Below, one piece after another: positions 2,119-60,635 of a DNA stretch of 64,000 nucleotides. Source of the stretch: Onthophagus taurus (Eukaryota > Arthropoda > Insecta > Coleoptera > Scarabaeidae); assembly GCF_036711975.1 (NCBI RefSeq), contig NC_091976.1:31930001-31994000 (forward strand). The letters are read 5' to 3'. The notes beneath the pieces are model-generated. The model worked only from the letters and a program-made list of their open reading frames with translations, did no database searches and was not told the origin of the DNA. A program made the position numbers and the translations under genes. The stretch's first letter is position 1. Each line of letters starts with the position of its first letter.

Positions 2119-2668
2119 ATGAACGCCTTGGTTAGTATAAAACCAACCCTTTTGTGGTAATAAATGTTACTAAAGAAATGTTTGATTCTAGTTTGTTGTC
2201 GCCCTTGCCTTTTTGGCTGCTGCCAATGCTAAACCATCTGGTCATGGTACTGGTGCTGTAATTTCTGGCCCAGCTGGTGTTGTTACTGGACATGGTGCCG
2301 TAGGACCAACTGGTCTTCCCAATGGCCATGGAGGTTGGGGTGGTGGATGGGGACATGGAGGAGGATGGGGTGCTGGTGCCTGGGGAGGACATGGTGGATG
2401 GGGAGGATATGGAGGAGATGCCGTTGTTGGTCATGGAGTAGCTGTTGTTGGACCTTCTGCTCATGGTGGAGCTTGGGCTGGAGCTGGTCATGGAGGTTGG
2501 GGTGGATGGGGAGGCGCTGGTTGGGGTGCCGGTTGGGGCGCTGGACACGGAGCCCATGGAGTAGCCGTTGTTGGACCAGCTACCGTCCCAGCTGCCGTTG
2601 TTGGACCATCCGGTAAAGTTGTTGCCGATGGATTGTACGGAGTCGGGCATGGACATGGTCATTGGTAA
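2119..2668 (+). CDS. Gly/His/Trp-rich cuticle-type secreted protein (162 aa, two exons)
   Basis: Exon 1 (2119-2130) encodes MNAL and ends at a GTTAGT donor. Exon 2 (2192-2668) follows a CTAG acceptor. The joined frame gives 162 residues. A signal peptide covers residues 1-17 (ending AAANA). After it come GHGTGAVISGPAGVVTGHG, a long block of GHGGWGG-type repeats, and a tail with VVGPSGKVV ending GHGHGHW. Low-complexity Gly/His/Trp proteins of this kind occur in insect cuticle, where His can bond to catechol quinones during sclerotisation; that role is inferred here. No chitin-binding Rebers-Riddiford motif is visible. It is the tandem paralogue of the gene at 4433, with the same exon layout, signal peptide and ends. 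A polyadenylation signal AATAAA lies at 2969-2974. Confidence 0.85.
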
Positions 2669-4432: not shown

Positions 4433-5082
4433 ATGAACGCATTGGTAAGTTCATTTACTAAAAATGTTAGATAATATTATAATAAAGTATTTTTTGGATG
4501 TTTTAGATCGTCTTCGCTCTTGTCTGCTTATCAGCAGTTAACGCCAGACCTGGAGGTCATGGCTCTGGTGCTGTGGTCTCTGGACCAGCTGGAGTTGTAA
4601 CCGGCCATGGTGCTGTAGGACCTGATGGTAATGCCAATGGACATGGAGGATGGGGTGGTGGATGGGGAGGTGGATGGGGAGGACATGGAGGATGGGGAGG
4701 ATGGGGTGGAAACGGAGCTTGGGGAGGACATGGTGGATGGGGTGGAGATGGTGGATGGGATGGTGATGATGGCAGCTACCCAGGTGACACCGATGATGAT
4801 GGCAGTTGGGGTGGACACGGAGGATGGAATGGAGATGGTGGATGGGATGGTGATGATGGCAGTTGGGGAGGACATGGTGGATATGGTGGTGATGCCGTCG
4901 TTGGACACGGTGTAGCCATCGTAGGACCTGCTGCCGGAGGTGGTAGCGAACTCCAAAGCCACGGACCCGGTGTCGCCATCGTTGGACCACACACTGTACC
5001 AGCTACCGTTGTTGGACCAGCCGGTAAAGTAGCTGCTGTTGGTCTTTACGGCGTTGGACACGGTGGTCATGGTCATTGGTAA
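4433..5082 (+). CDS. Gly/His/Trp/Asp-rich cuticle-type secreted protein (195 aa, two exons)
   Basis: Exon 1 (4433-4444) encodes MNAL and ends at a GTAAGT donor. Exon 2 starts at 4507 after TTTTAG and ends with TAA at 5080-5082. The signal peptide ends at residue 17 (AVNA). The mature protein starts RPGGHGSGAVVSGPAG, then has Gly-Trp repeats as in the gene at 2119. Here they are interleaved with acidic blocks (GDDGSYPGD, DTDDDGSWGG) that the paralogue lacks. The tail has VVGPAGKVA and ends GHGHW. The acidic insert (about residues 75-125) contains a near-duplicate DGGWDGDDGS unit, so slippage or unequal exchange probably enlarged it. Cuticle or matrix role is inferred from composition. AATAAA at 5223-5228. 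Confidence 0.85.
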
Positions 5083-5639: not shown

Positions 5640-8560
5640 TAATATTTGAGGCTAGACGAACTTAAAGAGTATACTTTTAGCTTTAATTCGGTATAAAAAT
5701 CATTCTTGTGTCTTAAAAAATAAAGCTCACACGATTTTTTGAAGCTAATCGATTTTTATCACAATTTGAAAATTTCACCAAAAAACTATTCTTTAATTTT
5801 TATGTTATTGCATCCGATTTATACACTTTAATTTTAGTCAGCATATATTATTTGAAAGAGCATACTTTAAGCTTTAATTCAGTATAAAAATCATTCTTGT
5901 ATCTTAAAAAATAAAGCTCATACGATTTTTTGAAATTTATCAAATTTTTTCACAATTTAAAAATTTTATCCAAAAACAGCTCTTTAATTGATATTTTTTT
6001 GAACACGAATTTAAATATTGATCGGCATATACCATCTTAAAGAGTATACTTTTAGCTTTAATTCGGTATAAAAATCATTCTTGTGTCTTAAAAAATAAAG
6101 CTCACACGATTTTTTGAAGTTAACCGATTTTTATTACAATTTGAAAATTTCACCCAAAAACTATTCTTTAATTTTTATGTTATTGCAGCCGATTTATACA
6201 CTTTAATTTTAATCAGCATATATTATTTGAAAGAGTATACTTTAAGCTTTAATTTAGTATAGAAATCATTCTAGTATCTTAAAAAATAAAGCTCATACGA
6301 TTTTTTGAAATTTCCAAATTTTTTCACAATTTAAAAATTTTATCCAAAAATTGCTCTTTAATTAATTGATATTTTTTTGAAGACGAATTTAAATATTGAT
6401 CGGCATATATCACCTTAAAGAGTATACTTTTAGCTTTAATTCGGTATAAAAATCATTCTTGTATCTTAAAAAATAAAGCTCACACGATTTTTTGAACTTA
6501 ACCGATTTTTATCACAATTTGAAAATTTCACCCAAAAACTATTCTTTAATTTTTATGTTATTGCAGCCGATTTATACACTTTAATTTTAATCAGCATATA
6601 TTATTTGAAAGAGTATACTTTAAGCTTTAATTTAGTATAGAAATCATTCTTGTATCTTAAAAAATAAAGCTCACACGATTTTTTGAAATTTATTAAATTT
6701 TTTCACAATTTAAAAATTTTATCCAAAAACAGCTCATTAATTGATATTTTTTTGAAGACGAATTTAAATATTGATCGGCATATACCATCTTAAAGAGTAT
6801 ACTTTTAGCTTTAATTCGGTATAAAAATCTTTCTTGAGTTTTAAAAAATAAAGCTCACACGAGTATTTGAAGTTAATCAATTTTTATTACAATTTTAAAA
6901 TTTCACTCAAAAACTATTCTTTAATTTTTATGTTATTGCAGCCGATTTATACACTTTAATTTTAATCAGCATATATTATTTGAAAAAGTATACTTTAAGC
7001 TTTAATTCAGTATAGAAATCATTCTAGTATCTTAAAGAATAAAGCTCACACGATTTTTTGAACTTAACCGATTTTTATCACAATTTGAAAATTCACCCAA
7101 AAACTATTCTTTAATTTTTATGTTATCGCAGCCGATTTATACACTTTAATTTTAATCAGCATATATTATTTGAAAAAGTATACTTTAAGCTTTAATTCAG
7201 TATAGAAATCATTCTTGTATCTTAAAAAATAAAGCTCACACGATTTTTTGAAGTTTATCAAATTTCTTCACAATTTGAAAATTTTATCCAAAAACAGCTC
7301 TTTAATTGATATTTTTTTAAAGACAAATTTAAATATTGATTGGCATATACCATCTTAAAGAGTATACTTTTAGCTTTAATTCGGTATAAAAATCATTCTT
7401 GTATCTTAAAAAATAAAGCTCACACGATTTTTTGAACTTAACCGATTTTTATCACAATTTGAAAATTCACCCAAAAACTATTCTTTAATTTTTATGTTAT
7501 CGCAGCCGATTTATACACTTTAATTTTAATCAGCATATATTATTTGAAAAAGTATACTTTAAGCTTTAATTCAGTATAGAAATCATTTTAATATCTTAAA
7601 AAATAAAGCTCACACGATTTTTTGAAATTTATCAAATTTCTTCACAATTTAAAAATTTTATCCAAAAACAGCTCTTTAATTGATATTTTTTTTAAGACGA
7701 ATTTAAAATTTTAATCGGCATATACCATCTTAAAGAGTATATTTTGAGTTTTAATTCGGTATAAAAATCATTCTTGTATCTTAAAAAATAAAGCTCACAC
7801 GATTTTTTGAACTTAACCGATTTTTATCACAATTTGAAAATTCACCCAAAAACTATTCTTTAATTTTTATGTTATCGCAGCCGATTTATACACTTTAATT
7901 TTAATCAGCATATATTATTTGAAAAAGTATACTTTAAGCTTTAATTCAGTATAGAAATCATTCTTGTATCTTAAAAAATAAAGCTCACACGATTTTTTGA
8001 AGTTTATCAAATTTCTTCACAATTTAAAAATTTTATCCAAAAACAGCTCTTTAATTGATATTTTTTTGAAAACGAAGTTAAATATTGATTGGCATATACC
8101 ATCTTAAAGAGTATACTTTTAGCTTTAATTCGGTATAAAAAGCATTCTTGTGGCTTAAAAAATAAAGCTCAGACGATATTTTGAAATTTATCAAATTTCT
8201 TCCCAATTTAAAAATTTTATCCAAAAACAGCTCTTCAGTTGATATTTTTTTGGAGACGAATTTAAATATTGATCGGCATATACCATCTTAAAGAGTATAT
8301 TTTGAGCTTTAATTTAATACAAAAATCATTAGTATATCTTCTAAAATAAAGCTCGCACGATTTTTTGAAGTTAGCCATTTTTATTACAATTTGAAAGCTT
8401 CACCCAAAAACAATTCTTTCATTTTTATTTTATTGAAGCCGATTTCTACACATTAATTTTAATCAGCATAAATAGTATACTTTAAGCTTTAATTCAGCAT
8501 TCACCCATTCTTCTATTTAAAAAAATAAAGCTCACACGAAACTTTGAAATTAATCAATTT
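5640..8560. repeat. AT-rich satellite, ~187 bp monomers in alternating dimers
   Basis: The string 'taaagctca' recurs near 5721, 5912, 6096, 6287, 6474, 6665, 6849, 7040, 7230, 7414, 7604, 7789, 7979, 8163, 8347 and 8526. Spacings alternate between about 190 and 184. Two monomer types alternate: one with 'ccgatttttatcacaatttg' and 'gcagccgatttatacac', the other with 'tttatccaaaaacagctc' and 'attgatcggcatatacc'. The higher-order unit is therefore about 375 bp. The last two or three units (after ~8300) are more diverged, as expected at an array edge. Confidence 0.9.
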
Positions 8561-9240
8561 TTACAGAACATTTTTTTTGTACTTTTGACTCCAATTTTAC
8601 AATATTCTTCTTGATCAGTATCTACCACCTTAAACAACAAACTTTAAGCTTTAATTTAATATAAAAATAATTCTTGCATCTTAAGAAATAAAATAATTCC
8701 AATTTTTTAACCTTAACCATACAACAATGATTGATTATTTATAAAAAGAACGGTTTGGTTTTACTACGTATTTCTTGAAAGTGTTATTTTTTCTTAGCAA
8801 TGCAATGCCGTCTGACTAACACATTCCCGTTACGATTATTTATTTGCGGACCTAATCACAGCAATAACAATATTAGAAATATGACGCATTCAGAAACCCT
8901 ATAACTATTTCATAAATTTCTACATCGATTTTGCACGTGACTTTAACAGATATGAATGGATTATCCATGTGTTCCTCACTACATCCGGAATACATATGTC
9001 AACATAGACCAGTTTTTTCTAGAAATGTGGAAAATACGCCGAACCGCGTCATTAATGCAGATATTATGCTAACTTTTGCTTTTGTGTCGCGAAGAAATAT
9101 ACTCATAGAAATGCCCTGTACCACGAAGGAAAGGCGTGGCGTTAAGCGCAAAAATTATTGCAAGGTTGCCATACGGTTATAAAACTCTGGAATATATTAG
9201 TGCCAACGCTCATACGGAGGATTGTTTAGTTGGTGACAAG
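8561..9240. other. Satellite edge and upstream region of the 9248 gene
   Basis: Decayed satellite sequence to about 8700, then unique sequence. A weak TATA-like 'aatatatt' lies near 9191 and an initiator-like TTAGTT near 9226. No gene recognised. Confidence 0.4.
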
Positions 9241-9247
9241 TGGTATC

Positions 9248-11152
9248 ATGAAGCAACTGGTAGGTGTTAAGTTCATTTCTTAATTTATTTTTTAATTAAT
9301 TAATTTCGTTTATTTTTAGATATTTTTGGCATATTTCGGTTTAGCTGTATTTGCTAAACCTAGCCATCATCATCATCATCATCACCATCCCCTTGCTGAT
9401 GTTTACCCAATACATCCAGGCGTTGGTGCTATTTATAAAGGTCCAAATTCCGAAACGATTATAAAAGGTCCCGATGGAAGTGTGATTACCGCCGAAGCTG
9501 ATGGTGGTTCTATAGGAGTAGATGGTCATAGTGAAGCGGTTAGTCACGTAGCTGTTGAAACAATAAATCATGGAGTTGGTCTTGGTCATCAAGCTGTTAG
9601 TGCGTCAGCTGGAGCTTATGTTCAAACAAATTCCATAGCACCTGCACCTGTTATCGTTGCTAAAGCTCCAGCACCTGTTGTTGTAGCCGAACCAGTTGTA
9701 CTTGTTCAAGATAACAGAGATGTTGCATCATTGGATGGCCCATCAGGATCTATTTTACGTCATGGAGAAGATGCGATTATTTCAGGACCTTCTTCAACGA
9801 CATATAAAGGGGGTAAACATGTAATTGATGTTCCTAACATTGAGGTACAAGCTAGTGTTGTTGGTGCCTCAGGTCCAGGGTATGTTCATGGTCCTGTAGT
9901 TGCCCCAACACCGATAATATCACCTGTTCATGGACCTGTTGTTTCTCCTGTTCCAGTAGTATCTCCAGTACCATCAGTTTCTCCATTCCCTATTGTTTCT
10001 TCAGGTCCTATAGTGGAAACAATAGTTAGTTCAACACCTGGTCCAATTTTAATTAACCCACCACCAAGACCATTGAGACCAAGGCCTGTTTTAGTCGACA
10101 CAACCCATCCTTTTAAACCTTTATCTTCTCCTGTACCAGTTTTGGTAGATAATACCCACCTCGCCGGATCAACTTTAGGAACATCTTCAGTATTAGTTGA
10201 TAATTCTCAAATTTTACGAAATGAAGTGGTAGTTTCAAGTCCAGGTCCAATTCTACACGACACCTCAGCTATTTCAATCCACAACGAAGTAGTTCCCCAA
10301 GTCGTTGTTTCAAGTACTCCAAGTCCGGTGTTAAGTGCTACCCCAATCGTTGTAGCCCCATCTAAAACAATTGTTGCTGCACCAACCGTTGAATTAAGTC
10401 CACCTTCTGTTGGAATTTATTCAACACCCGCATCTCATATCGTTGGACATGCAAACGAAGAAGCTCTCTCAGCCATCATTGCTAAAAACGCCGAGGCTGA
10501 ACAATCTTATTTATCCGCCCTTCGATATGCTGGATATGAAAAAGCTTTAGCTGCGGAAGCTGAAAGGAAATCGTTAGCGGCAGCTATCGCATCTGGGGCT
10601 TATTCAGGACATGGAATTGCAGAACATTCTATTAATCCGGTTGTTAGCCAAGGAAATCACATAATTACAGGAGGTATTGTATCAAGCACAGCTGCACCTG
10701 TTATTGTTTCTAGCACTCCAGCCCCAATTTTGGTGACTTCAACTCCGGCTCATGGCGAAGTTGTTGGATTAGGACATGAAATTGTTTCAGTTGGGCCCCA
10801 AGTTTATCAAGAAAATGGGATCGTTTCGGTAACTCCAAAACCAGAGGTTATTGTTTCCAGACCAACAGCGATCTTGGCTCCTCATCCACCACCAGCTCTT
10901 GGCCAAATTATTGTTCAAAATGAACGAGTCTCTTCCGCTAGTAAATCTAGTGAGCATTCATCATCAGTAAAAAGCTCTTCATCTACAATATCTGGCCCAG
11001 CAGTTTTAGGGGGACCTCACGGATATAGATTACCAGCTGGTCCACCATTGGGATATCAATCTGATTACTCACAATGGCGTCAAAGTGTATCAAAACAAGC
11101 ATACCACGAAGAAGAAAGCGGTTATTCGGTCCAAAAAGGACTTTTGCATTAA
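9248..11152 (+). CDS. Large cuticle-type secreted protein with His8 tract (614 aa, two exons)
   Basis: Exon 1 (9248-9259) encodes MKQL and ends at a GTAGGT donor. Exon 2 runs from 9320 to the TAA at 11150-11152. The signal peptide covers residues 1-16 and is followed at once by KPS and eight consecutive His. Residues ~25-100 contain GPNSETIIKGPDGSVITAEA, which shares the GPxGSV motif with the neighbours. A Pro/Val/Ser-rich middle has repeated VSSTPxPIL-like and PVLVDNT-like units. Residues ~386-435 form an Ala/Glu-rich, probably helical segment (AEAEQSYLSALRYAGYEKAL). A Ser-rich stretch at ~540-565 precedes the end. No enzyme motif is visible. It is three to six times longer than its neighbours but has the same four-codon first exon. 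Probable structural extracellular protein. AATAAA at 11243-11248. Confidence 0.85.
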
Positions 11153-12756: not shown

Positions 12757-15097
12757 ATTCAAATATTACTTTCACTCTCTACCCTCTTCCTCCATTTCCA
12801 CGCCCTCGGCTCTTCGGTCCAATCATCCCCTCACCCATCCCTTTGTCTCTTCACCCCCATCACCATTCTCATCCTTCGTTTCCCCTCTCCCCCCTCTTCT
12901 AAGATCTGCCTTCGGTCCATCTCCTCCTCCCTCAACTCACTGCACCCATTCAGCATATGTTCTAACGTTTCCCATTCCTCCCTGCACAGCCTACACCACC
13001 TCTCCTCATCGGCCATCCAGTATTTGTTGGCTCTCTCCTCGTTTCCACAACGGAACCTAGCCACCAACTTTTTCCCTTCCTCATCTCTTTCCAATAACAA
13101 GTATCTAGGCAGCCCCTCCGTAATTATGTCCCTGTATCTTTCCTTATACCTTCCCTCTTTTATTTGTGTCCTTCTTTCCTGTCTCTGCACATCTCGGTCC
13201 CTGTCTCTCAACTCCCTCCACATCTCCCTACCCACCCTTCGTCTACTATTTATCTCCGTTACCGAGTAGCCCGCTCGTCTATAACAGTTGTCTCTGTGTC
13301 CTTTCCCATATCTGACCTTTCCCTCTCTAATTTCCCTCCAACACTCCCCCAGGATACCGCAGCTTGGCCTCCCTTCTATTCTTTCTTCATATTTCACTGC
13401 CCTCCTGCCCGCCTCCACCCTGACCTTATCCACCTTTACCTCTTCCCTCACTATATACCCCGGTGTTTCTCTCGCCACCCCAAGCACCCATCTCCAATAT
13501 CTAGCCTGCACGTCCTCCAGCGGTCCCTGCTCCCTCCATCCCCATACCTCTACCCCATACATCATCACACTGCTAACCAGACCTTCTAACATAATCTTCC
13601 TCGCTGCCACATTCCTTCCAAAGACTCTCTTCCCTCAACCCCATAGAACTGTCCAGAACACGTCGCTCAGCTTATCTCCCACTTTTATCCTAGCCATCGT
13701 CTCCATGTATATTTCCTTCACTCTCGCAATTAGGTGTTCCGTTATCCCCCTTCTCCCCATCTTCTCCCACAACTTCCCCCTATCCACCTTATCAAAAGCC
13801 GCCTTCAAATCTATAAACAGGGCGTACAATTTCCCTCCCTTCTTATCCAGCTCTCTATCTGCCAAATGCTTCAACACATACACGTTGTCGATTGCTCCCC
13901 TTCCCTTTCGAAAGCCTGCCTGCCCATCCGGCAAAATTCCCCCCAACTCCATCTCCTCCTCCAATCTTCCCAGCAGTATCTTCGTGTATACCTTGTATGC
14001 CGAGTCTAGTAGATTAATTCCCCTGTACCTCTCTACACTTCCCTTATTACCCTTTTTATATACTGGGCAAATTACCCCCACTTTCCATCCCTCCGGAATC
14101 CCACCCCCTCTCCATACGATATTCATCCCCTCCAACAACTTCACTCGCACCACCCTTGATGCTTCCAACCATGCTTCGTTATGTATCCCATCTTCACCTG
14201 GCGCCTTTCCCTTCTTCAATCTCCTAAGCACCGCCTCCATCTCCTCTTCTGCTATCTCCCCATCTCCCTCATATCCTCCCAACCCCGTTAGCCTCGTTTC
14301 AACCCCTCCCAATAATCCCATAAAGTAACTCTTCCATTCTGTCATGTGTATTTCGCTGGTTATCGTCTCCCTACCCTTCATTCCTTTTTTCAGATACCTG
14401 CAGACCTCCCCTTCCCTTGTTATCCCCCTAATCTCTGCCGCCTCCTTCTCCCTCAATTCTGTTTTCTTTCTACTGCATAACTCACTGTATTCTCTCCTGG
14501 CTTCCCTATATCTATCCACCTCTATCTTCCCCCGTCTCCACAGCCTCAACCTCCTTCTCGCCTCCCTCTTCGCCTTCTTGCACTCGCCATCATACCAGTC
14601 GTTCCTCCCCACTTTGTCCCCCCTACGTACACACTCCCTTTTCAGTGTTGCCTCCCGCACTACCTGGGTAAGCTCTTCCAACCCGTTGATCTCTTGTATC
14701 CTCTGTTGCCAAGTGTCGAGGTTTCCCCTGTAGAATGCTACCTCTTCTTCCGACCAATCTGTCCTGATGAACTTGCTACCCAGTTCCGCTCGCCTTCTGT
14801 CGCCCAACCCCTTTACCTCCACCTCCAACGGTTAGTGATCCGACTCTACCGCTTTCCCACTTTAAACCTTTCCACCCTCTCCCACATTTCCTGATCCACC
14901 AATACATAATCAATCACAGATGTCCCCCTCGCCCCGATGTAAGTATACTCCCCTTCCTCTTTATTCCCATTCAGTATCTCCCATCCGTTCTCCTCCACCC
15001 ATCTCAGCATTTCTGTTCCTTCTCCATTCCGCACAGTATCCTTCGACCGCCGTCGTCCCTCCTCTCCCCATATCTCAACTATTACTTTTACTATTAC
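12757..15097 (-). mobile_element. 5'-truncated, internally deleted LINE (endonuclease/RT/zinc knuckle)
   Basis: On the minus strand the order is: the end of an AP-endonuclease domain (15034-14846, with SVIDYVLVDQE), an SDH motif cut by an in-frame TAA near 14835, then reverse transcriptase (14828-13635) with KAPGEDGIHNE, CPVYKKG, INLLDSAYKV, GFRKGRGAIDNV and FIDLKAAFDKVDR. It stops before the catalytic YADD box. The next segment (13628-12831) resumes at the thumb or C-terminal domain (SSVMMYGVEVWGWREQ) and ends with a zinc-knuckle-like CRLCxxEWETLEHMLNGC. Near-identical 13-14 bp strings, TTATTATTTACATT (12743-12756) and TTATTATTACATT (15098-15110), look like a slightly diverged target-site duplication. 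Related to the copy at 63184-64000. Confidence 0.88.
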
Positions 15098-15884: not shown

Positions 15885-16444
15885 TTAATAGAGTCCATGG
15901 CCAAGTCCCAAACCTAACCCATGACCAACTCCTAATCCCAAACCGAGTCCATGTCCTAATCCGACTCCATGTCCTAAACCGAGTCCATGTCCTAAACCGA
16001 GTCCATTATTGGTAGCGACGGATCCAGATGGTCCAGCAATGACAGCTCCTCCTAATCCAACGCTGATTGAACCAGATGGAATAACTGGTTTGGCGATGAT
16101 GGGGGCAGCGAGGATGGGAGCTGGGGCAATAATGGGAGCGGCGACAACTCCTGGGGCAACAGCAGCGGCGACATGACCTCCGGGAATTGGAGCAGCAGCT
16201 AAAGCTCCAGCATCAGCAGCACCAACGATTACGCTGCCATCTGGACCATGAAGGGTGGCTTGAGCAGCTGGTCCTTTAAGAAGAGCACCTGGGTTTCCAG
16301 GACCTGCTAATCCTACTCCTAATGGGAGTACTGAAGCGTAAGCGGTGGACAAAGCCAAAAAGAAAACAATAACCTAAAATAAAAAAAATTTGATTAAATC
16401 AGCTTTTGAATTAGTTGCATTATTTTTCTTACCATGGAGTTCAT
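15885..16444 (-). CDS. Gly/Ala/Leu/His-rich cuticle-type secreted protein (166 aa, two exons)
   Basis: Minus strand: exon 1 (16444-16433) encodes MNSM with a GTAAG donor. Exon 2 (16373-15885) follows TTTTAG. The signal peptide ends near residue 17 (ALSTAYA). The mature chain begins SVLPLGVGLAGPGNPGALLKGP, then has HGPDGSVIVGAADAG, an Ala/Pro-rich middle (PIIAPAPILAAPIIAKP), VIAGPSGSVATNNG, and a tail of alternating GLGHG/GVGLGHG repeats ending GHGLY. It is very close to the gene at 18001; the upstream DNA is also duplicated. Codons in the GLGHG tail are homogenised (gg(a/t)-ct-ggt-cat type), as expected of a repeat that expands and shrinks. AATAAA (minus strand) at 15803-15798. Confidence 0.87.
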
Positions 16445-17449: not shown

Positions 17450-18001
17450 TTAATAGAGTCCATGGCCAAGTCCCAAACCTAATCCATGTCCGTAACCTAA
17501 TCCCAAACCGACCCCATGTCCTAAACCAACTCCAAGTCCGTTATTAGTAGCAACAGACCCAGATGGTCCAGCAATGACAGCTCCTCCTAACCCAACGCTG
17601 ATTGATCCAGATGGGATTACTGGTTTGGCGATGATGGGGGCAGCAATGATGGGAGCTGGGGCAATAATTGGGGCAGCAACAATTCCAGGGGTAGCAACAA
17701 TTCCAGGAGCAACAGCAGCGGCTACATGACCTCCGGGGATTGGAGCAGCAGCTACAGCTCCAGCATCAGCAGCACCAACGATTACGCTTCCATCTGGGCC
17801 ATGAACGGTGGCTTGAGCAGCTGGTCCTTTAACGAGAGCACCTGGATTTCCAGGACCTGCTAATGCAACTCCTAATGGGAGTACTGAAGCGTAAGCGGTG
17901 GACAAAGCCACGAAGAAAACGATGACCTAGAATAGAAAAAATTTAATCTTCTCTTCTTAAAATTTAATTTAAATAATTAATCTTCTCACCATGGAGTTCA
18001 T
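17450..18001 (-). CDS. Gly/Ala/His-rich cuticle-type secreted protein (162 aa, two exons)
   Basis: Minus strand: exon 1 (18001-17990) encodes MNSM with a GTGAG donor. Exon 2 (17926-17450) follows TTCTAG. Same architecture as the 16444 gene: signal peptide to ~17, SVLPLGVALAGPGNPGALVKGP, HGPDGSVIVGAADAG, Ala/Pro-rich middle, VIAGPSGSVATNNG, GLGHG tail ending GHGLY. It differs by an extra IVATPG repeat step in the middle and a shorter tail (with GYGHG), so repeat copy number has changed since duplication. AATAAA (minus strand) at 17363-17358. Confidence 0.87.
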
Positions 18002-18279: not shown

Positions 18280-20520
18280 AGATAGATAATGTGATTTTTA
18301 AGGTTATCTCAATAATTATTGGTGGAATCAAAAATTTTTTCGAATAATATTTGTTTAGAATTAAACCAACAATAATTTTTGTTTGAAAAATTTTTCAATA
18401 TTTTTGTTTGTTCGCGCTGTAATATAATAGTTAAAATCATCGTTTCATTTAAATGATATAGAAAATGTGATTTTTGAGGTTATCTCAGTAATTATTGGTG
18501 GAATCAAAAACTTTTTCGAATAATATTTGTTTAGAATTAAACCAGCAATAATTTTTGTTTGAAAAAATTTTCAATATTTTTGTTAATTGGCGTTCTTTAG
18601 TAGCTAGAATCACCGTTTCATTTAAATGATATGGAAAATGTGATTTTTGAGGTTATCTCAGTAATTATTGGTGGAATCAAAAATTTTTTCGAACAATATT
18701 TGTTTAGAATTAAACCAACAATAACTTTTATTTGAAAATTTTTTCAATATTTTTGTTTTTTAGCGCTGTATAATAGTTAAAATCATCGTTTCATTTAAAT
18801 GATATAGAAAATGTGATTTTTGAGGTTATCTCAGTAATTATTGGTGGAATCGAAAATTTTTTCGAACAATATTTGTTTAGAATTAAACCAGTAACAATTT
18901 TTGTTTGAAAAAGTTTTCAATATTTTTGTTAATTGGCGTTCTTTAGTAGCTAGAATCATCGTTTCATTCAAATGGTATAGAAAATGTGTTTTTTGAGGTT
19001 TTCTCAATAATTATTGGTGGAATCAAAATATTTTTCGAATAATATTTGTTTAGAATTAAACCAACAATAACTTTTATTTGAAAATTTTTTCAATATTTTT
19101 ATTTTTTAGCGCTGTATAATAGTTGAAATCATCGTTTCATTTAAATGATATAGAAAATGTGATTTTTGAGGTTATCTCAGTAATTATTGGTGGAATCAAA
19201 AATTTTTTCGAACAATATTTGTTTAGAATTAAAGCAATAATAACTTTTATTTGAAAAATTTTTCAATATTTTTGTTTGTTGGCTCTGTATAGTAGCTAGA
19301 ATCATCGTTTCATTTAAATAATATAGAAAATGTGATTTTTGAGGTTATCTCAGTAATTATTGGTGGAATCAAAAATTTTTTCGAATAATATTTGTTTAGA
19401 ATTAAAATACCAATAATTTTTGTTTGAAACATTTTTGAATATTTTGGTTTTTTGGCGCTGTGTAGTAGTTAGAATGATCGTTTCATTTAAATGATATAGA
19501 AAATGTGATTTTTGAGGTTATCTCAGTAATTATTGGTGGAATCAAAAATTTTTGCGAACAATATTTGTTTAGAATTAAAATAACAATAATTTTTGTTTGA
19601 AACATTTTTCAATATTTTTGTTTGTTGGCGCTGTGTAGTAGTTAGAATCATCGATTCATTTAAATGATATAGAAAATGTGATTTTTGAGGTTATCTCAGT
19701 AATTATTGGTGGAATCAAAAATTTTTTCGAACAATATTTGTTTAGAATTAAAGCAACAATAACTTTTATTTGAAAAATTTTTCAATATTTTTGTTTGTTG
19801 GCTCTGTATAGTAGCTAGAATCATCGTTTCATTTAAATGATATAGAAAATGTGATTTTTGAGGTTATCTCAGTAATTATTGGTGGAATCAAAATTTTTTT
19901 CGAATAATATTTGTTTAGAATTAAACCAACAATAACTTTTATTTCAAAATTTTTTCAATATTTTTGTTTGTTGGCTCTGTATAGTAGCTAGAATCATCGT
20001 TTCATTGAAACGATATCGAAAATGTGATTTTTGAGGTTATCTTAGTAATTATTGGTGGAATCAAAAACTTTTTCGAATAATATTTGTTTAGAATTAAACC
20101 AGTAACAATTTTTGTTTGAAAAAATTTTCAATATTTTTGTTAATTGGCGTTTTTTAGTAGCTAGAATCATCGTTTCATTCAAATGGTATAGAAAATGTGA
20201 TTTTTGAAGTTATCTCAATAATTATTGGTGGAATCAAAAATTTTTTTGAATAACATTTATTTAGAATTAAACCAACAATAACTTTTATTTGAAAATTTTT
20301 TCAATATTTTTATTTCTTAGCGCTGTATAATAGTTAAAATCATCGTTTCATTCAAATGGTATAGAAAAAGTGATTTTTGAGGTTATCTCAATAATTATTG
20401 GTGGAATCAAAAACTTTTTCGAATAATATTTGTTTAGAATTAAACCAACAATAATTTTTATTTGAAAAATTTTTCAATATTTTTGTTTGTTGGCGCTGTA
20501 TAGTAATTAGACACGTTAAT
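18280..20520. repeat. 173-bp satellite array, about 13 units
   Basis: The string 'gtgatttttgaggtta' (or close variants) starts near 18291, 18467, 18640, 18813, 18986, 19159, 19332, 19505, 19678, 19851, 20024, 20197 and 20370. After the first step (176) every spacing is exactly 173. Units share 'cagtaattattggtggaatc' and 'tttgtttagaattaaa'. A strongly diverged unit follows to about 20690. The sequence is unrelated by eye to the 5.6-8.6 kb satellite. Confidence 0.93.
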
Positions 20521-21648: not shown

Positions 21649-22223
21649 ATGAAGTACTTTGTAAGTTATCTACGAAATTATGTGATTTTATCATCATTTT
21701 CTTCATTATTTTTTTTTTATAGGCAGTCTTTTTATTGGTTTTGGCCACAAGCCAAGCATCCATCATTCCAGTTGCCCATTACGTCCAACCTGTTAGTGCG
21801 ATTACTAAAGGTGCTTCGTTTAGTTCTGCATCAGCTGGATCGGATGGTGCATCTGCTTCTTTCGTCGAAGGTGCCACCATTGCTAAAATTGGAAATCATG
21901 CAGCTTTAGTTTCTCCGGGAATTGCAGCCCATGCTGTAGCTCCAGCAATTGCTCCTGCTTTTGTAGCTCCTGGTCCAGCTGTTCTTGCTGCACCAGCTGT
22001 TGTTGCTGCAGCCCCAGCCGTTGTAGCTGCAGGACCTACTGTGGTTTCTCATGGAACCGGAGCTATTATTGCTGGACCTTCTGGTACTGTTGCCACAAGC
22101 AATGGTTTGGGACTTGGTGTAGCGCCAGTTGTTGCTGCAGCACCCGCTGTAGCATCCGCAGTCATTGTCCCAGCAGTAGCCAAAGCTGCTGTTGTTGTAG
22201 GCGGACATGGACATTTATATTAA
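21649..22223 (+). CDS. Ala/Val/Pro-rich cuticle-type secreted protein (170 aa, two exons)
   Basis: Exon 1 (21649-21660) encodes MKYF with a GTAAGT donor. Exon 2 runs from 21723 (after TATAG) to TAA at 22221-22223. The signal peptide ends near residue 17 (LATSQA). The mature protein starts SIIPVAHYVQPVSAITKG, then a Ser/Ala block (ASFSSASAGSDGASASF), Ala/Pro/Val repeats (APAVVAAAPAVVAAGP), IIAGPSGTVATSNGLGLG, and a tail ending GGHGHLY. The GPSGTVAT motif and GH-L-Y ending tie it to the minus-strand genes at 16444 and 18001. Ala-Ala-Pro-like repeats are common in cuticle proteins; function is inferred from composition. AATAAA at 22346-22351. Confidence 0.87.
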
Positions 22224-22531
22224 ATTAATGGATTTTTGTTAAAAGTGTTGATTAAAGTTTATAGGAGGTTTATTTATGAATTCGCTTTTTGCTTCTTTTA
22301 TTTTGTTTTAATTTTTTTTTTATTTACCTCAATTTTCTTTTGCAAAATAAAAGAGTTATTGATACTAACATCGATTTTTATTAATAATAAATTTAAATTT
22401 CCCGGATTTATTAAAACGTTTATTTAACTCTAGAGATGTCGCCACCATAAAGAAGGTTTCGTTTGGTAACTTAACCTCAATAACTTCAAATAATAACTAT
22501 TTCGCTATTTTTTTAATAATTTTCAAAGAAT

Positions 22532-22744
22532 ATGAAGAATCCTGAGATAAATCAGATTAGTTTAAACTCAGGGTTATTATCTAAACATAAATCGACCATC
22601 TAGAACAATGCTACAAGGCACAAAATTGAAGTAAGCAAATTTGAACATAACCTATAAATAAAAATTGTGTTTTAATACATTTTAGGTAAAAAAGTCTATA
22701 TATTTAGAACGAAACACTGTTTTAAGGACTCTAATGAACTTTGC
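22532..22744 (+). pseudogene. NXF 5'-end relic, copy 1
   Basis: Exon 1 copy starts at ATG 22532 and has an in-frame TAG where the intact gene has Tyr24. The GTAAGC donor and TTTTAG acceptor are kept. The exon 2 start codes for IYLERNTVL-like sequence, then runs into the next unit. Confidence 0.85.
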
Positions 22745-22924
22745 GAGTTATTGATATTACCATTGATTTTTATTAACAATAAATTTAAATTTCCCGGATT
22801 TATTAAAACGTTTATATTTAACTCTAGAGATGTCGCCACCATAAAGAAGGTTTCGTTTGGTAACTTAACCTCAATAACTTCAAATAATAACTATTTCGCT
22901 ATTTTTTTAATAATTTTCAAATAA

Positions 22925-23138
22925 TATGAAGAATCCTGAGATAAATCAGATTAGTTTAAACTCAGGGTTATTATCTAAACATAAATCGACCATCTAGAAC
23001 AATGCTACAAGGCACAAAATTGAAGTAAGCAAATTTGAACATAACCTATAAATAAAAATTGTGTTTTAATACATTTTAGGTAGAAAAGTCTATGAATTTA
23101 GAACGAAACACCGTTTTAAGGGCTCTAATGAACTTTGT
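22925..23138 (+). pseudogene. NXF 5'-end relic, copy 2
   Basis: Same layout as copy 1, with ATG at 22925, the same exon 1 TAG, an intact short intron, and exon 2 ending MNFVSY then stop. Confidence 0.85.
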
Positions 23139-23307
23139 GAGTTATTGATATTAACATTGATTTTTATTAACAATAAATTTAAATTTAAAATCATTTAAAT
23201 TTAACTCTAGAGATGTCGCTACCGTATAGAATGTCTTTTTTGGTAACTTAACCTCAATAACTTCAAACAGTAACTATTTCGCTATTTTTTAATAATTTTC
23301 AAATAAT

Positions 23308-23520
23308 ATGAAGAATCCGTAGATAAATGAGTTTAATTTAAACTCAGGGTTATTAGCTAAACATAAATCGACCATCTACAGCAATGCTACATGGCACAAA
23401 ATTGAAGTAAGCAAATTTGAACATAACCTATAAATAAAAATTGTGTTTTAATACATTTTAGGTAGAAAAGTCTATGAATTTAGAACGAAACACCGTTTTA
23501 AGGACTCTAATGAACTTTGC
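23308..23520 (+). pseudogene. NXF 5'-end relic, copy 3
   Basis: ATG at 23308. Exon 1 has a stop at codon 5 (TAG), but the rest, including TWHKIE and the donor, is intact. Exon 2 is open to the junction and then ends in ASY-stop. Confidence 0.85.
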
Positions 23521-23689
23521 GAGTTATTAATATTAATATTGATTTTTATTAACAATAAATTTAAATTTAATAACATTTAAATTTAACTCTAGAGATGTCG
23601 CTACCATAGAGAATGTTTTATTTGGTAATTTAACCTCAATAACTTCAAAAAAAAGTTATTTCGATGTATTTTAATAATTTTCAAAGAAT

Positions 23690-23902
23690 ATGAAGAATCC
23701 TGAGATAAATCAGTTTAATTTAAACTCAGGGTTATTATCTAAACATAAATCGATCATCTACAGCAATGCTACATGACACAAAATTGAAGTAAGCAAATTT
23801 GAACATAACCTATAAATAAAAATTGTGTTTTAATACATTTTAGGTAGAAAAGTTTATGAATTTAGAACAAAACTTCGTTTTAAAGACTCTAATGAACTTT
23901 GC
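23690..23902 (+). pseudogene. NXF 5'-end relic, copy 4
   Basis: ATG at 23690. Exon 1 is open until a TGA replaces the Trp codon of TWHKIE. Splice sites remain. The exon 2 start is slightly diverged (NLEQNFVLKTLMNF). Confidence 0.85.
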
Positions 23903-24071
23903 GAGTTATTGATATTAACAGTGATTTTTATTAACAATAAATTTAAATTTACAATCATTTAAATTTAACTCTAGAGATGTCGCCACCATAGAGAATGTTT
24001 TGTTTGGTAACTTAACCTCAATAACTTCAAACAGCAACTATTTCGCTATTTTTTAATAATTTTCGAATAAT

Positions 24072-26250
24072 ATGAAGAATCCCGAGATAAATCAATTTAA
24101 TTTAAACTCAGGGTTATTAGCGAAACATAAATCGACCATCTACAGCAATGCTACATGGCACAAAATTGAAGTAAGCAATAAAATTTGAACATAACCTATA
24201 AATAAAAATTGTGTTTTGATACATTTTAGGTAGAAAACGCTATGAATTTAGAGCGAGACACCGTTTTAAGGACTCTAATGAACTTTGTACATCCTCTTGA
24301 CTTTATTCCTGTTTGTTATGAAACTAAAGGATCATGCGTTAGTTTCCTCCTAAAGAATTGTGGAGCTGCTATCGAAAGACTTTGTAGGCACAACTTGATA
24401 GTTACAAACCCACAAGATGCTTCAATGCCTGTAATTAATATTAATTTTTCTTTATATATAGATTTTTTTAAATAATTTTTATAATTTTAGTTTAAAATTA
24501 AAATTATATTAAAATTTGCTTACGCCGCTGATTTAAAAATTAATATTCAAAACAATATAATTTCTGTTTTGAATAAACGATACCATGCAGAATCAAGTGT
24601 GTTAAATTTGGAGATGTTTTATAAAGATCCTGGTAAGACTCAAATCGTTAATTTAGCTTTAATTAAACTTATTGTTTATAATTTTTTAGATCTTATTGAG
24701 TTTTGTACACTTTCCCAACCGAAACTAATGTTTTATGTGCTCCATTTAAGTCGAAGTGAAAATCGACCAAAACATCCCAAATCAATAAAACTCTCGAATA
24801 ATGAAATTGAAATTTTAAAACCTTTAGAGGCTCTTTTCGGTCTTAAATCTTTAACATCTCTAGATTTGCGAAATAATAGAATCAAAGAAATTGATGCAAG
24901 TTACTTTAAGGATTTAAACATCACCGAATTATGGCTTGATGGGAATCCAATTTGTGATGATTACGACGAATACTCTTATCCAAGAGCAATTAGGGAGATG
25001 ATCCCTACTTTAGAAAAATTAGATGGCGTTTTTATTAAGAATAAAGGGGTGTTGCCTTTTCGAAGAAACTTTTTGTGTTCATCTTCAGGTCATGATTTAG
25101 TCGATCAATTCATGGAGCATTATTTTAATTTATATGATACAACAAATAGAAATTATTTAGATGGTGTTTATCATAAAGAAGCTATGTTTTCTATGTCTGC
25201 TCATTATTTAGGTTTACAAAGTACATCTTTGACTGCAAAGTAATAATTTTTGTTGTTATATACGAAATGTTTTAATTATTATTTGTTCATTTTAGGTTAT
25301 CACCATATAAAAAAGTGACTCGAAACTTAAAAATGATGTCAGATTTTTCAAAAAATGATGAATGCTTATTTAGAGGTCGTGATTCCATCGTGAGATTAAT
25401 AACGCAACTTCCTTTAACAGAACATGATCCAAATACTTTTACTGTTGATTTGATGTCTTACACTGTAAGGAATTTAATGTTTTTGTTGAAATAAAAAAAA
25501 ATGAAGGATTTTTTTGATAGGAAACTGCTGCTGTTTTGGTTATAGCTGGCGTTTTTCGTGAAGTACCCCAAAATTTGCTTGATGCAGATCGAATTTTGGG
25601 ATTCTCAAGAGTTTTTGTGTTACTTGCAGGTGTAAATGATGAATATTCAATAGTTAACGAACAATTACATGTTTATAACGCAACATCCGCTCAAGTTATC
25701 CGCTCATTTAAGCAACCTAAAATCTCTAGACCTTCTCATATCCAAATTCCTCCGCCAAAAAATATTAAAGAACAAGTTATGTTGGCTGAAGCACTTGTGA
25801 GTCTTACCGGTCTTGATATAGAATGGGCTACAAAGTTTGTATTTTTATTAACCAATTTTTTAGTCATTAAAATTAATTTCAATTTTAGGTGTTTAGAAGA
25901 ATGCCAATTTGATTTTAAAAGAAGTTTAGAATTATTCGTGGATTTATTTAAATTGGATAAAATCCCAGCAAACGCTTTTAGGTAAATAAAAAAATAAGTA
26001 AAATTATTTTAAAAATTAATATACGAATACATGTTTTTTAAACTTAATTGATTTTTTTCTCACCCTTTTCTCTCCTCCTAGGAATTTATTAGTACAACCT
26101 AAGAATCCACAACCATTGGCAGAAAATCCTTTGCAATCATTCACCACTCCTTTACCAAATAACATAAACGAATTTTCTAATACTTTTAAGAAAAAAGAAC
26201 TCAATCGTAAACAACGTGTAAGTTTGGTTAATATCACGTTAAAGAATTAA
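24072..26250 (+). CDS. Nxf: NXF-family nuclear RNA export factor (597 aa, seven exons)
   Basis: Exons: 24072-24170, 24230-24430, 24491-25239, 25296-25464, 25521-25834, 25889-25981, 26082-26250. Joined they give an unbroken 598-codon frame. Order as in NXF1/TAP: RRM-like domain from ~29 (TWHKIE across intron 1, LDFIPVCYETKG); leucine-rich repeats ~198-280 (SLDLRNNRIKEID, ELWLDGNPICDD, LEKLDGV); NTF2-like domain ~300-470 (LVDQFMEHYFNLYDT, AVLVIAGVFREV, VNEQLHVYNAT); C-terminal UBA-like TAP-C domain ~490-550 (GLDIEWATKCLEECQFDF). NXF1 with NXT1/p15 carries mRNA through nuclear pores; the TAP-C and NTF2-like folds bind FG nucleoporins. Oddities: only ~28 residues before the RRM; a ~46-residue Asn/Lys tail after TAP-C; exon 5 uses a GTTTGT donor. 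A good donor (cgt|GTAAGT, 26219) in the last exon could allow another end. Sequence is divergent, so a paralogue such as an Nxf2-like gene is possible. Confidence 0.88.
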
Positions 26251-26660: not shown

Positions 26661-27469
26661 CAGGAATTTTAAATTGTAACTCAGATAAGGGCCAGGTAAC
26701 CGTGGCGATGAATCGGAGAAGAGATTACATTGAGAAACCTATTTACAACAGGTTAATTTGCCACAACGGTATTATTCCTTAATATTACGGCCTTCCAAAG
26801 ATCCATAAACGAGATTGTCCCTTGAGATCTATTATTTCTTTCGTTGGCTCACCCACGTATGAATCGCCTAATTTTGTGGCTCGTATTCTGACTGAAGAAT
26901 TTAGAGCGAGAACTTCGTATAACATTAAACACACTTTCACCTTTGTTGAAGAAATGAAAAGGAGAACCTTACCTCATAATTTTGTGTTAATATCTTTGGA
27001 TGTTGTTTCTTTGTTTACTAGTGTTCCCTTATCATTAGTAAAACAAATCATAACTGATAAATGGGATACCCAAATCGACAGAGACCTTTTCATTGAGATA
27101 ATAGCCTTCCTTTTTGAATTTTCTATTTTTTCCTTTGATGGAAAGATTTATAGTCACATGGTAGTCCCTTGAGACCCATCCTCGCCACTATTGTGATGGA
27201 TTATTTGTTAAATCAATGTATCCCTTCACTTGATTTTACTTTTCCTTTCATTTTTAAGTATGTTGATGACATCATTGCTCAGTTCCGTCCGATTCTGTTG
27301 ACGCTGTAATCAGAGTTTTCAATAGCTTTGATCAACACCTTCAGTTCACTGTAGAGACAGAGGTTGGGTCATCAATCCCCTTTCTTGATACCAGGGTTAT
27401 AAGTGAACCCAACCAAAACATCATTTTGAATTGGTACACTAACCCCACTTACTCTGGGAGATACATTAA

Positions 27470-29062
27470 CCCATTTAGTCCCACTGGTGTAAAAACGCAC
27501 CAGCATTTTTAAAATTATTTTACAGCCATACATTTCCAAATTTAAAGATGTTAGCTGTTTGTACGATAACAGTATAAGGTTGTTAGGCTATACATATCAA
27601 AATATTTCATGATTCTTGCTATTTAAACCATATTTACATCAATTCTTTTCTATTGAACATTTCTGTTCAAAATATACAATAAAAATAAAACTATTTTTAG
27701 TGCATAAAATTCTTCAAAATTTTTTCATTTGCAACTTTTTAGTGCATACTTGAAAATACGACTTGAAACATGAATGGTGCAAAAACGCACCATTGGGACG
27801 ATGTATGAAGAGATATAAGGATTGTATCATCTTTCGTATTACTTGAAACCAGTTTAGACGCGTCTGTTAGGTGAATTTCCGAACGAATTTAGTTTATGGA
27901 ATACGGGAAAATCAAAATTAGGCTTGGGTGGTGAAGTAGTTATGCAATTACTCTCTGTAGTAAAAAATCCTCATGTTCATCGGATATTTTTTGACAATTT
28001 TTTTTCATCGTTTGATTTGTTTGTTGAATTGAAAAATAAAGGTTTTTTTGCTACCGGTACTGTACGCGATAACAGAACGAAAAATTGTCCGTTAGAAAAC
28101 ATAAAATGTACTTCAAAAAAGGAAAGGGGTTTTTTGATACAGCTTATGATACCTGTTCAAAAATTTCTTTAGTACGATGGAATGATAACTCCGTTGTCAC
28201 TGTAATTACTAACCATTTGAATGTGGAGCCAATACAATCAATTAAGAGGTACAACAGAAAGAAAAAAAAGAAACACTAGTTAATCAACCTTATGCGGTAT
28301 CAGAATATAATAAATTCATGGGTGGTGTAGATTTACACGATAACGGAATAGCCAACTATAGAACAAGAGTATTAGGAAAGAAGTGGTGGTGGCCACTATT
28401 TATTAATTCATTGGATAGTGTCATAATAAACGCGTGGAAATTATACAATACTGTCAATAATACTAAAATGGCACAGTTGGATTTTAAATCACATATTGCA
28501 GTTCGGCTAATGAAATATGAAAACGCAACACCTAATACTGAACGAAACACGAGGTCAAACAGAGAATTTGAATCTTCCAATGACCATTTAATAAAGAATC
28601 ACGACTCTAAAGCTTGTAGAAGATGTAAAATATGCCATAAACATACTATACATATCTGTAGTAAGTGTAATGTTCATTTACATGTAGAGTGTTTTACGGA
28701 CTATCACAATAAATCGTTATACTGTTAATCCCATTAGTGCGTTTTTGCACCAATTTTAGTTTAAATATTTTTTATATTAAACTTTATACTAAAGTTGGTA
28801 TTTGTTAGTATAATGTTGTATTAGTATTATTATTTATTTACGACTAATTTATTACTTAGTTAATAAATGATAATCAAAATTTTTGTGTGCTGTTGTTCAC
28901 TTATCTTACCAGTGGTGCATTTTTGCACCATCTCATATCTCAAAAACAATTTTTTGTTTCAAACACCTGTGTACATTTTTATACTCTTCATTCCATCTTA
29001 TCTTAAGGAAAAGTATAAAAAATCAATTTTTTTAAACATAAAGCAGCTTGGGACTAAATGGG
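27470..29062 (+). mobile_element. piggyBac-superfamily DNA transposon, internally deleted
   Basis: Perfect 14-bp terminal inverted repeats: CCCATTTAGTCCCA at 27470-27483 and its complement at 29049-29062. Each end is bounded by TTAA (27466-27469 and 29063-29066), the piggyBac target site. Length is 1593 bp, below the usual ~2.3-2.5 kb of autonomous elements, because the 5' half of the transposase gene is missing. Subterminal copies of GGTGCAAAAACGCACC-like palindromes lie at 27486, 27777, 28738 and 28914. The insertion interrupts the PLE reading frame. Confidence 0.92.
27890..28728 (+). pseudogene. piggyBac transposase remnant (C-terminal half)
   Basis: Three frame segments in order: LGLGGEVVMQLLSVV…HRIFFDNFFSSFDLF…ATGTVRDNRTKNCPL (27924-28160), KKGKGFFDTAYDTC…LVRWNDNSVVTV (28085-28279) and MGGVDLHDNGIANYR…GKKWWWPLFINSLDSVIINAWKLY (28318-28728). 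The FFDNFF and GGVDLHD Asp residues fit the second and later catalytic Asp of piggyBac transposases. The first catalytic Asp lies in the missing part. A Cys/His-rich end (CRRCKICHKH…CSKCNVHLHVECF) matches the family's C-terminal zinc-binding domain. Two frameshifts, near 28130 and 28270. Confidence 0.88.
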
Positions 29063-39540: not shown

Positions 39541-40710
39541 ACTTCTATTCTCTACTAGCACCCAATGGGCTATAAATTTTACTTACTCTTCACACAAGAG
39601 ACAGTAATGTCAGCTGAATATTATCAAATCTTGTGGAAAGTATGTTCCTTGCAAAGTGGTGCTTTCATCATATATATCGATCTTATAAATCTATTTAATC
39701 TCCCATCTTGTATATATTAATACTTACCATCTTTGATGCAGATAAATTTTATCACAGCATTCTTCGAGATGTATTGAACCATCGATCAATGATTACCGCA
39801 GTACTAATACAAACTAAATTGAGAGTGCTATTTTCGTAGCGGGAAATAATACTGGTGTCAGTAAAAAATTCTTCAAATAACATCAATAAATATACAGTTA
39901 CTCATTATGAGATCAACTTACTCTTCACACAAGAAGTCATTTGAATATTACCAAATCTTGTGGAAAGTATGTTCATTGCAAAGCATACCGATCATATAAA
40001 ACTGTTTAATCTCCCTTCTTGTATTTATTAACACCAACTATCTTTGATGCAGATAAATTGTATCATATAGAATTCTTCGTGATGTATTGAACCATCGATC
40101 AATGATTACCGCAGTACTAATACAAACTAAATTGAGAGTGCTATTTTCGTAGCGGGAAATAATACTGGTGTCAGTAAAAAATTCTTCAAATAGCATCAAT
40201 AATCATACAGTTACTCATTATGAGATCAACTTACTCTTCACACAAGAAGTAGTGCTTATCATTTGAATATTACCAAATGTTGTGGGCAGTATGTTAATTG
40301 CAAAGTATACCCATCATATAAAACTATTTAATCTCACATCTTGTATTTATTAATACCAACCATCTTTGATGCAATTAAATTTTGTCATATAGAATTCTTC
40401 GAGATGTATTGAACCATCGTTCAATGATTACCGCAATACTAATACAAACAAAATTGAGAGTACTATTTTCGTAGCGGGAAATAATACTGGTGTCAGTAAA
40501 AAAATTTTCAAATAGCATCAATAATCATACAGTTACTCATTATAAAATCAACTTACTCTTCACACAAGAAGCTGTGCTTGTCATTTTAATATTACCAAAT
40601 CTTCTGGAAAGTATATTCATTGCAACAAAGCATACCGATCATATAAAACTATTTAATCTCCCTCTTTGTATTTATTTGAAAGATCGATCAATGTTTGCCG
40701 CAGAACTAAT
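39541..40710. repeat. Tandem repeat, ~313-335 bp, about 3.5 units
   Basis: 'cttactcttcacacaag' recurs near 39582, 39917, 40230 and 40552. Units share 'gtagcgggaaataatactgg' and 'gaaccatcgatcaatgatt'. The final unit is partial. The array ends ~270 bp before the PLE at 40975. Confidence 0.9.
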
Positions 40711-60500: not shown

Positions 60501-60635
60501 AAAATCGATGATAACTCAAAAACTAAGAATGATGAGATAAAACTTTATTAACAAAAATTGTTAGTGATGAAGTCTAGAAGTTATGACCCTTAACCGATTT
60601 TATTCCAACACAATTAATTTTTACATTATGAAACA
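57515..60635. repeat. 174-bp satellite array with internal dyad, about 18 units
   Basis: 'tttttggacatcaaaatcga' recurs near 57536, 57710, 57883, 58057 and 58231, and so on to ~60490, at 173-174 bp. Each unit contains 'aaaaactaagaatgatgaga' and, ~70 bp later, its near-complement 'tctcaacactcttagttttt', so single strands can fold. Units are very alike, and variants (taagcatgttgag versus taagaatgatgag) recur in a mixed order. The last unit (60560-60635) is diverged. Confidence 0.94.

What the first reader, a model, noticed from the sequence alone, without database searches (positions are those of the whole stretch)
22353..24288. NXF gene preceded by four tandem copies of its own promoter, first exon and intron
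Each ~382-394 bp unit carries the upstream region, ATG-containing exon 1, a 55-59 bp intron with GTAAGC donor and TTTTAG acceptor, and the start of exon 2. Only the last unit leads into the real gene. The four upstream copies keep splice sites and start codons but carry different stops in exon 1 (TAG at Tyr24, TAG at codon 5, TGA at Trp29). They could act as extra promoters, splice to the true exon 2, or act as decoys. This is amplification of a gene's 5' end rather than of a whole gene.
Basis: seen in the sequence. Interest (0 to 1): 0.82.

Follow-up and report, generated by a model that had tools for sequence, protein, structure and literature searches.

The report
Fivefold repeat of an NXF gene's start
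In an insect-like genome, the front end of a gene for an RNA-export protein is present five times in a row; only the last copy can start the full protein, and the other four look like decaying by-products of local DNA repetition, with a small chance that they tune the gene.

Summary
Five complete head-to-tail units (392, 394, 382, 382, 386 bp; 22353-24288) each hold 169-181 bp of upstream DNA, a 99-bp exon 1 with ATG, a 55/59-bp intron and 59 bp of exon 2. Only unit 5 continues into an intact NXF gene (24072-25985, 523 aa). Exon 1 is stopped in 4 of 4 upstream units. Best explanation: an illegitimate partial tandem duplication, later multiplied and shuffled by unequal exchange or conversion; the upstream copies are decaying relics. 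Kept ATG and splice sites are weak evidence of function (chance 0.12 for 15 sites). Splicing an upstream exon 1 to the true exon 2 cannot give full-length NXF. The kind of event is known: Arabis PEP1 has a duplicated promoter part and exon 1. Open: a 70-bp tract over the intron is invariant in units 1-4 (24 of 20,000 permutations), and whether the copies affect output, as rDNA spacer promoters do. No RNA data, no own genome and no relative were available.

The parts
22353..22744 (+). Unit 1: upstream DNA, exon 1 22532-22630 (TAG at codon 24, W29R), intron 22631-22685, exon-2 fragment 22686-22744
22745..23138 (+). Unit 2: exon 1 22926-23024 (TAG at codon 24, W29R), intron 23025-23079, exon-2 fragment 23080-23138; core like unit 1, ends closer to unit 3 (mosaic)
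23139..23520 (+). Unit 3: exon 1 23308-23406 (TAG at codon 5), intron 23407-23461, exon-2 fragment 23462-23520
23521..23902 (+). Unit 4: exon 1 23690-23788 (TGA at codon 29), intron 23789-23843, exon-2 fragment 23844-23902
23903..24288 (+). Unit 5, the only open 5' end: exon 1 24072-24170, intron 24171-24229 (4-bp insertion and one substitution relative to units 1-4), exon 2 from 24230
24072..25985 (+). NXF gene, 523 aa, exons 24072-24170, 24230-24430, 24491-24632, 24690-25239, 25296-25464, 25521-25834, 25889-25985 (stop TAA 25983-25985; AATAAA at 25985)
   Evidence: gene model, splice sites set by eye; PDB 6e5u NXF1 E 6.4e-51; Pfam NXF_NTF2, LRR_NXF1-5, TAP_C above cut-off
21723..22223 (+). 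Last open frame of the upstream neighbour, an Ala/Val-rich cuticle-type protein (label recalled, not searched); 129 bp lie between its stop and the array

Best explanation
A segment running from just behind the upstream neighbour gene to 59 bp inside exon 2 of an NXF gene was duplicated head to tail by a non-homologous join. The array then grew to five units and was reshuffled by unequal crossing-over or gene conversion. Extra copies end up upstream of the 3'-most unit, so the gene always kept an intact 5' end made by the last unit. That unit carries its own copy of whatever promoter lies in the segment, and NXF is made from it (inferred). The four upstream copies cannot give full-length NXF and are drifting (inferred). 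Any RNA they make would probably be short and non-coding: the exon-2 fragment runs into a stop three codons past the joint, and an AATAAA lies about 34 bases into each following unit. Shown: anatomy, stops, joint, mosaic pattern, open gene. Inferred: order of events, use of the unit-5 promoter, lack of function upstream.
For: Four of four upstream exon 1 copies are stopped, by three different stops. Coding changes: upstream branches 2 synonymous, 16 missense, 3 nonsense (2 of 21 synonymous); unit-5 branch 4 of 8 synonymous; Fisher p 0.033. u2 is a mosaic: core columns 49-268 differ from u1 at 1 and from u3 at 22 sites, while the ends differ from u1 at 10 and from u3 at 3; p 1e-5, with boundaries chosen after looking. 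The joint shows no microhomology (sequences printed). The array has no blastn match elsewhere in the window at E 1e-3, and the 752 bp before it have none in the array. Seven arrays with units of about 170-390 bp, picked from the 39 TRF rows, fill 16.8 kb, 26% of the window, so array formation is common here. Partial duplicates are frequent in nematodes and flies (passages of PMC3449122).
Against: The tract from the end of exon 1 through the intron does not vary in u1-u4 (0 of 55 intron sites against 50 of 380 overall, hypergeometric 2.2e-4; longest invariant run 70 bp, reached in 24 of 20,000 permutations), which pure drift does not predict. Exchange in that tract would explain it, but so would constraint; the tract was picked after looking. 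The coding-change contrast rests on 29 changes, a majority ancestor with one tied column and no outgroup, and partly reflects that unit 5 was chosen as the intact copy. Taken alone, the unit-5 excess of synonymous changes has p 0.05-0.14, and the upstream changes do not differ significantly from neutral.
Confidence: 0.8

Rival explanations
1. Promoter dosage: the four extra promoter copies raise or tune NXF transcription in cis, as duplicated promoters in the rDNA spacer raise Pol I transcription, without giving coding mRNA themselves.
For: Five same-strand copies of the region just upstream of the ATG, with stretches of up to 21 columns invariant in all five (alignment). [quoted passage not shown]
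Against: No promoter is shown in any unit. The upstream region is no less variable than the coding parts among u1-u4 (28/167 against 22/158 sites). Read-through RNA would cross many upstream ATGs (26 from an assumed start at 22500). The analogy is with Pol I.
Confidence: 0.1
2. Alternative first exons: upstream exon 1 copies are spliced to the true exon 2, giving NXF lacking the start of its RNA-binding domain (from Met38) or controlling it by unproductive mRNA.
For: Four of four upstream donors are intact and the donor/intron tract is invariant in u1-u4. In Arabis alpina PEP1 two copies of exon 1 are spliced to one exon 2 (passages).
Against: Every upstream exon 1 is stopped (4 of 4). Each donor has its own acceptor 55 nt downstream, the size range of the five further introns of this gene (54-60 bp), so skipping to unit 5 is unlikely.
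Confidence: 0.05
3. Small-RNA or decoy source: transcripts of the upstream copies feed small-RNA silencing of NXF or compete for factors bound by the real promoter.
For: An nxf2 fragment captured by the TART-A transposon is proposed to let it repress nxf2 through piRNAs (abstract of PMC7785250).
Against: All five copies are in the same orientation. The 11 inverted pairs found are 30-36 nt at 72-80% (shorter ones were not asked for). No Rfam match up to E 1. None of this excludes the idea.
Confidence: 0.03
4. Assembly artefact: true copy number differs, perhaps one.
For: No reads available; tandem repeats are often misassembled (general knowledge).
Against: Units differ at 2.8-10% with unit-specific stops and indels.
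Confidence: 0.02

Closest known systems
Arabis alpina PEP1 locus (partial tandem duplication with parts of the promoter, exon 1 and part of intron 1; PMC3527215, passages read)
   Same: Tandem copy of part of a gene's promoter region and exon 1 upstream of a single gene body.
   Different: There two copies of exon 1, 6.3 kb apart, both spliced to the same exon 2 and, in one accession, predicted to encode identical proteins; their upstream sequences share little homology. Here four extra copies, adjacent and alike, each with its own acceptor and exon-2 start, all stopped.
Partial (incomplete) gene duplicates, such as Makorin1-p1 with 700 bp of the 5' region (PMC3449122, passages read)
   Same: Truncated 5' copy of one source gene; such copies often carry premature stops.
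   Different: Here repeated in tandem and physically joined to the parent's 5' end.
Tandem 5' cassettes of chelicerate sDscam and vertebrate clustered protocadherins (PMC4835542, passages read)
   Same: Repeated cassettes, each with promoter and first exon(s), ahead of one constant region.
   Different: Those cassettes encode variable domains and are spliced to constant exons. These are not open and carry the exon-2 acceptor inside each cassette.
Promoter duplications in the rDNA intergenic spacer (PMC1215480, passages read)
   Same: Several copies of a promoter region upstream of the true one (same strand: recalled).
   Different: rRNA genes (Pol I, recalled), no coding exon in the repeat (recalled); effect on output shown there, unknown here.

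Membership tests
Partial tandem gene duplication | Copies come from one source gene, adjacent and head to tail, and hold only part of it | tested here: met
Partial tandem gene duplication | Ancestral single-copy state shown by an outgroup | not testable with these tools
   No genome held; no relative confirmed in viral contigs (15 pattern matches, 0 confirmed); a 20-base unit motif has no exact match in genome contigs, which are prokaryotic
Clustered 5' variable cassettes (sDscam / Pcdh type) | Each cassette has an open coding exon up to its donor | tested here: not met
   4 of 4 upstream exon 1 copies have a stop
Clustered 5' variable cassettes (sDscam / Pcdh type) | The constant-exon acceptor occurs once, downstream of all cassettes | tested here: not met
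   5 of 5 units carry a copy of the exon-2 acceptor
PEP1-type duplicated first exon | Each copy of exon 1 can code for the start of the protein | tested here: not met
   4 of 4 upstream copies fail when joined to the true exon 2
PEP1-type duplicated first exon | All copies of exon 1 are spliced to the same exon 2 | not testable with these tools
   No RNA data
rDNA-type spacer promoters | Several same-strand copies of the region upstream of the start, ahead of the true one | tested here: met
   that the region is a promoter is assumed
rDNA-type spacer promoters | Output rises with copy number | not testable with these tools
   No expression data
Dispersed satellite DNA | Same unit found in other arrays or single copies elsewhere | tested here: inconclusive
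   No blastn match elsewhere in the 64-kb window; rest of the genome not searchable
NXF (TAP/Mex67) family | RRM, LRR, NTF2-like and TAP_C domains in order | tested here: met
   LRR_NXF1-5, NXF_NTF2 and TAP_C above cut-off; the RRM is the weak point: Tap-RNA_bind 17.4 bits, below its cut-off of 24; the match to 6e5u covers residues 29-522

The most novel reading that the evidence does not exclude
The array is a Pol II counterpart of rDNA spacer promoters: an expandable stack of promoter cassettes, each closed by its own start, small intron, early stop and polyadenylation signal, whose copy number sets the output of an RNA-export gene, with exchange in the invariant intron tract keeping the stack recombination-competent.
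Probability: 0.06. Interest if true: 0.7.

Novelty: new member of a known kind. Interest (0 to 1): 0.3.

Why it matters
It is a clean, small example of how a tandem array can grow out of a gene's own 5' end without breaking the gene, because the 3'-most unit remains joined to the gene body. If the extra copies change expression, it would be a simple natural copy-number series for promoter dosage. If they do not, it warns that intact ATGs and splice sites in young repeats are not evidence of function.

Tried and rejected
Own genome: none held, so copy number, other NXF genes and dispersed copies could not be examined. Relatives: a 183-aa NXF LRR/NTF2-like piece gave 15 pattern matches in viral contigs, 0 confirmed as relatives; a 20-base invariant motif has no exact match in genome contigs. 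By their descriptions these collections hold viral, bacterial and archaeal contigs, so these negatives say little. Rfam over 22200-24600: no match up to E 1.

Considered and dropped: function from preserved ATG and splice sites (chance 0.12 for 15 sites, 0.055 for 20). An OVO-type motif CNGTTA (motif seen in an abstract in the listing) occurs once in unit 5 and in none of units 1-4, but the window average is 0.74 per 386 bp, so it is chance-level. My first gene model added two exons after 25981; one search shows an in-frame TAA and AATAAA right after the TAP_C end, so the shorter model is preferred. A 575-aa version of the longer model was the one searched. Literature: searches used NXF words; in the titles and abstract starts listed (15 of 20 and 10 of 25 papers; the phrase 'nuclear RNA export factor' occurs in 0 of the 10 listed) I saw no report of this arrangement. 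Searches asked about satellites, duplicated promoters and first exons in general. The library holds open-licence papers only, so absence from print is not shown.

Full report
Observation. The window holds five complete tandem units at 22353-24288. Unit lengths are 392, 394, 382, 382 and 386 bp, and identities over the 10 pairs are 90.0-97.2%. Each unit contains 169-181 bp of upstream DNA, a 99-bp exon 1 starting with ATG, an intron of 55 bp (59 in unit 5) and the first 59 bp of exon 2. In units 1-4 the exon-2 fragment runs into the next unit, and its frame closes three codons past the joint. In unit 5 it runs on into the gene.

The gene. The preferred model has seven exons (24072-25985) and 523 codons, ending in TAA with an AATAAA at 25985. 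Splice sites were set by eye and checked only by the open frame and the matches. phmmer against PDB chains gives NXF1 6e5u at E 6.4e-51 over residues 29-522. Pfam gives NXF_NTF2 (8.4e-36), LRR_NXF1-5 (1.3e-16) and TAP_C (1.5e-10) above cut-off, and Tap-RNA_bind at 17.4 bits below its cut-off of 24. The match starts at Trp29, so the end of exon 1 appears to encode the first strand of the RRM and exon 1 belongs to the gene. Only 28 residues precede it, without the Arg-rich N-terminal region of NXF1 (recalled). Whether this is NXF1 or a paralogue was not settled: in its NTF2-like part two chains named NXF1 score 84-85 bits, and two named NXF2 score 70 (6mrk) and 22 (3nv0).

State of the copies. 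Units 1 and 2 share TAG at codon 24 and W29R, unit 3 has TAG at codon 5, unit 4 has TGA at codon 29. On a majority ancestor, the upstream branches carry 2 synonymous, 16 missense and 3 nonsense changes and the unit-5 branch 4 synonymous and 4 missense (Fisher p 0.033). Neutral expectation is 19-26.5% synonymous, depending on transition bias. The unit-5 excess alone has p 0.05-0.14. The upstream copies do not differ significantly from neutral (synonymous deficit p 0.06-0.21, nonsense excess p 0.06-0.13). There is no outgroup, and one column was tied.

How it arose. The bases on either side of the joint share no microhomology (printed), so the first duplication was probably a non-homologous join. 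The flank shows no older partial unit by blastn. Unit 2 is a mosaic: its core is almost unit 1 (1 difference in 218) and far from unit 3 (22 in 208), while its two ends are closer to unit 3 (3 in 174) than to unit 1 (10 in 174), p 1e-5 with boundaries chosen after looking. That is the mark expected of unequal exchange or conversion within the array. Seven arrays with units of about 170-390 bp, picked from the 39 TRF rows, fill 26% of this window, so array growth is a habit of this region, and one such array catching a gene's 5' end needs no special cause.

The odd point. Among units 1-4, 50 of 380 ungapped columns vary, but 0 of 55 in the intron. The longest invariant run is 70 bp, reached by 24 of 20,000 permutations. 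In 10 of 10 pairs the longest identical stretch includes columns 269-327, although pair by pair it is often unremarkable (20 to 1,090 of 5,000 permutations reach it). The simplest reading is that exchanges fall in this tract; constraint on the intron is the alternative. Against constraint, the open copy, unit 5, is the one with a 4-bp insertion and a substitution there. The tract also holds TATAAATA in 5 of 5 units, 33 bases before the start of exon 2, five of the ten occurrences on the window's + strand; in AT-rich DNA this is only a lead.

What the copies could do. Splicing any upstream exon 1 to the true exon 2 gives a stopped frame (4 of 4), and the next in-frame ATG is codon 38. A read-through RNA from an assumed start at 22500, with the short introns removed, would have a 1,352-nt leader with 26 upstream ATGs, 0 of 26 in an open frame joined to NXF. 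AATAAA lies about 34 bases into each of the five units and in each of the five introns, so short terminated RNAs are plausible but unshown. Kept ATG and splice sites are expected often enough by chance (0.12 for 15 sites, 0.055 for 20).

Comparison with the known. The closest case I saw is PEP1 of Arabis alpina, where part of the promoter, exon 1 and part of intron 1 are tandemly duplicated and both exon 1 copies are spliced to one exon 2 (passages). Partial duplicates are common in nematodes and flies, and truncated 5' copies such as Makorin1-p1 are known (passages). Tandem 5' cassettes of sDscam and protocadherins (passages) look similar, but fail two defining tests here. Duplicated promoters of the rDNA spacer are the best functional analogy for the boldest reading: in Drosophila, promoter activity follows their number (passage). 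In Tribolium, dispersed TCAST repeats very rarely overlap exons (abstract passage); the species of this window is not known.

Verdict. What is unusual is the copy number and that each unit carries its own splice pair, not a new kind of system.

Noticed in passing
window 5661-8563, 18282-20505, 39674-40676, 46121-49540, 51307-55617, 57520-60636: Six further tandem arrays with units of about 170-375 bp; with the NXF array the seven TRF arrays cover 26% of the window. The 301-bp family (TRF 47638-48964) extends to about 46121-49540 by blastn.
   Followed up: partly
window 24159-24232 in unit 5 coordinates, and the matching tract in units 1-4: 70 bp over the end of exon 1 and the intron do not vary in units 1-4; conversion hot spot or constraint is unresolved.
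   Followed up: partly
window 24197 and 22653, 23047, 23429, 23811: TATAAATA in the intron of every unit, 33 bases before the start of exon 2.
   Followed up: no
window 26783-27172: Open frame that looks like part of a Penelope-like reverse transcriptase (recalled motif GLPKIHK; no Pfam match up to E 0.1), behind the NXF gene.
   Followed up: partly
window 27858-28728: Two pieces of a broken piggyBac-type transposase (Pfam PF13843 in 2 of 2 pieces; piggyBac label recalled).
   Followed up: partly
window 12831-14831 (-) and 63274-63642 (+): Open frames that look like retrotransposon reverse transcriptase pieces (recalled); the two places share a stretch of protein.
   Followed up: no
window 2192-2668, 4507-5082, 9320-11152, 15885-16373, 17450-17926, 21723-22223: Cluster of Gly/His- or Ala/Val-rich secreted cuticle-type proteins on both strands (open frames; family label recalled).
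   Followed up: no
window 26020-26250: Open frame that could be spliced on to the NXF gene after 25981, lengthening its C-terminus past the TAP_C domain; an in-frame stop makes the shorter form likelier.
   Followed up: partly
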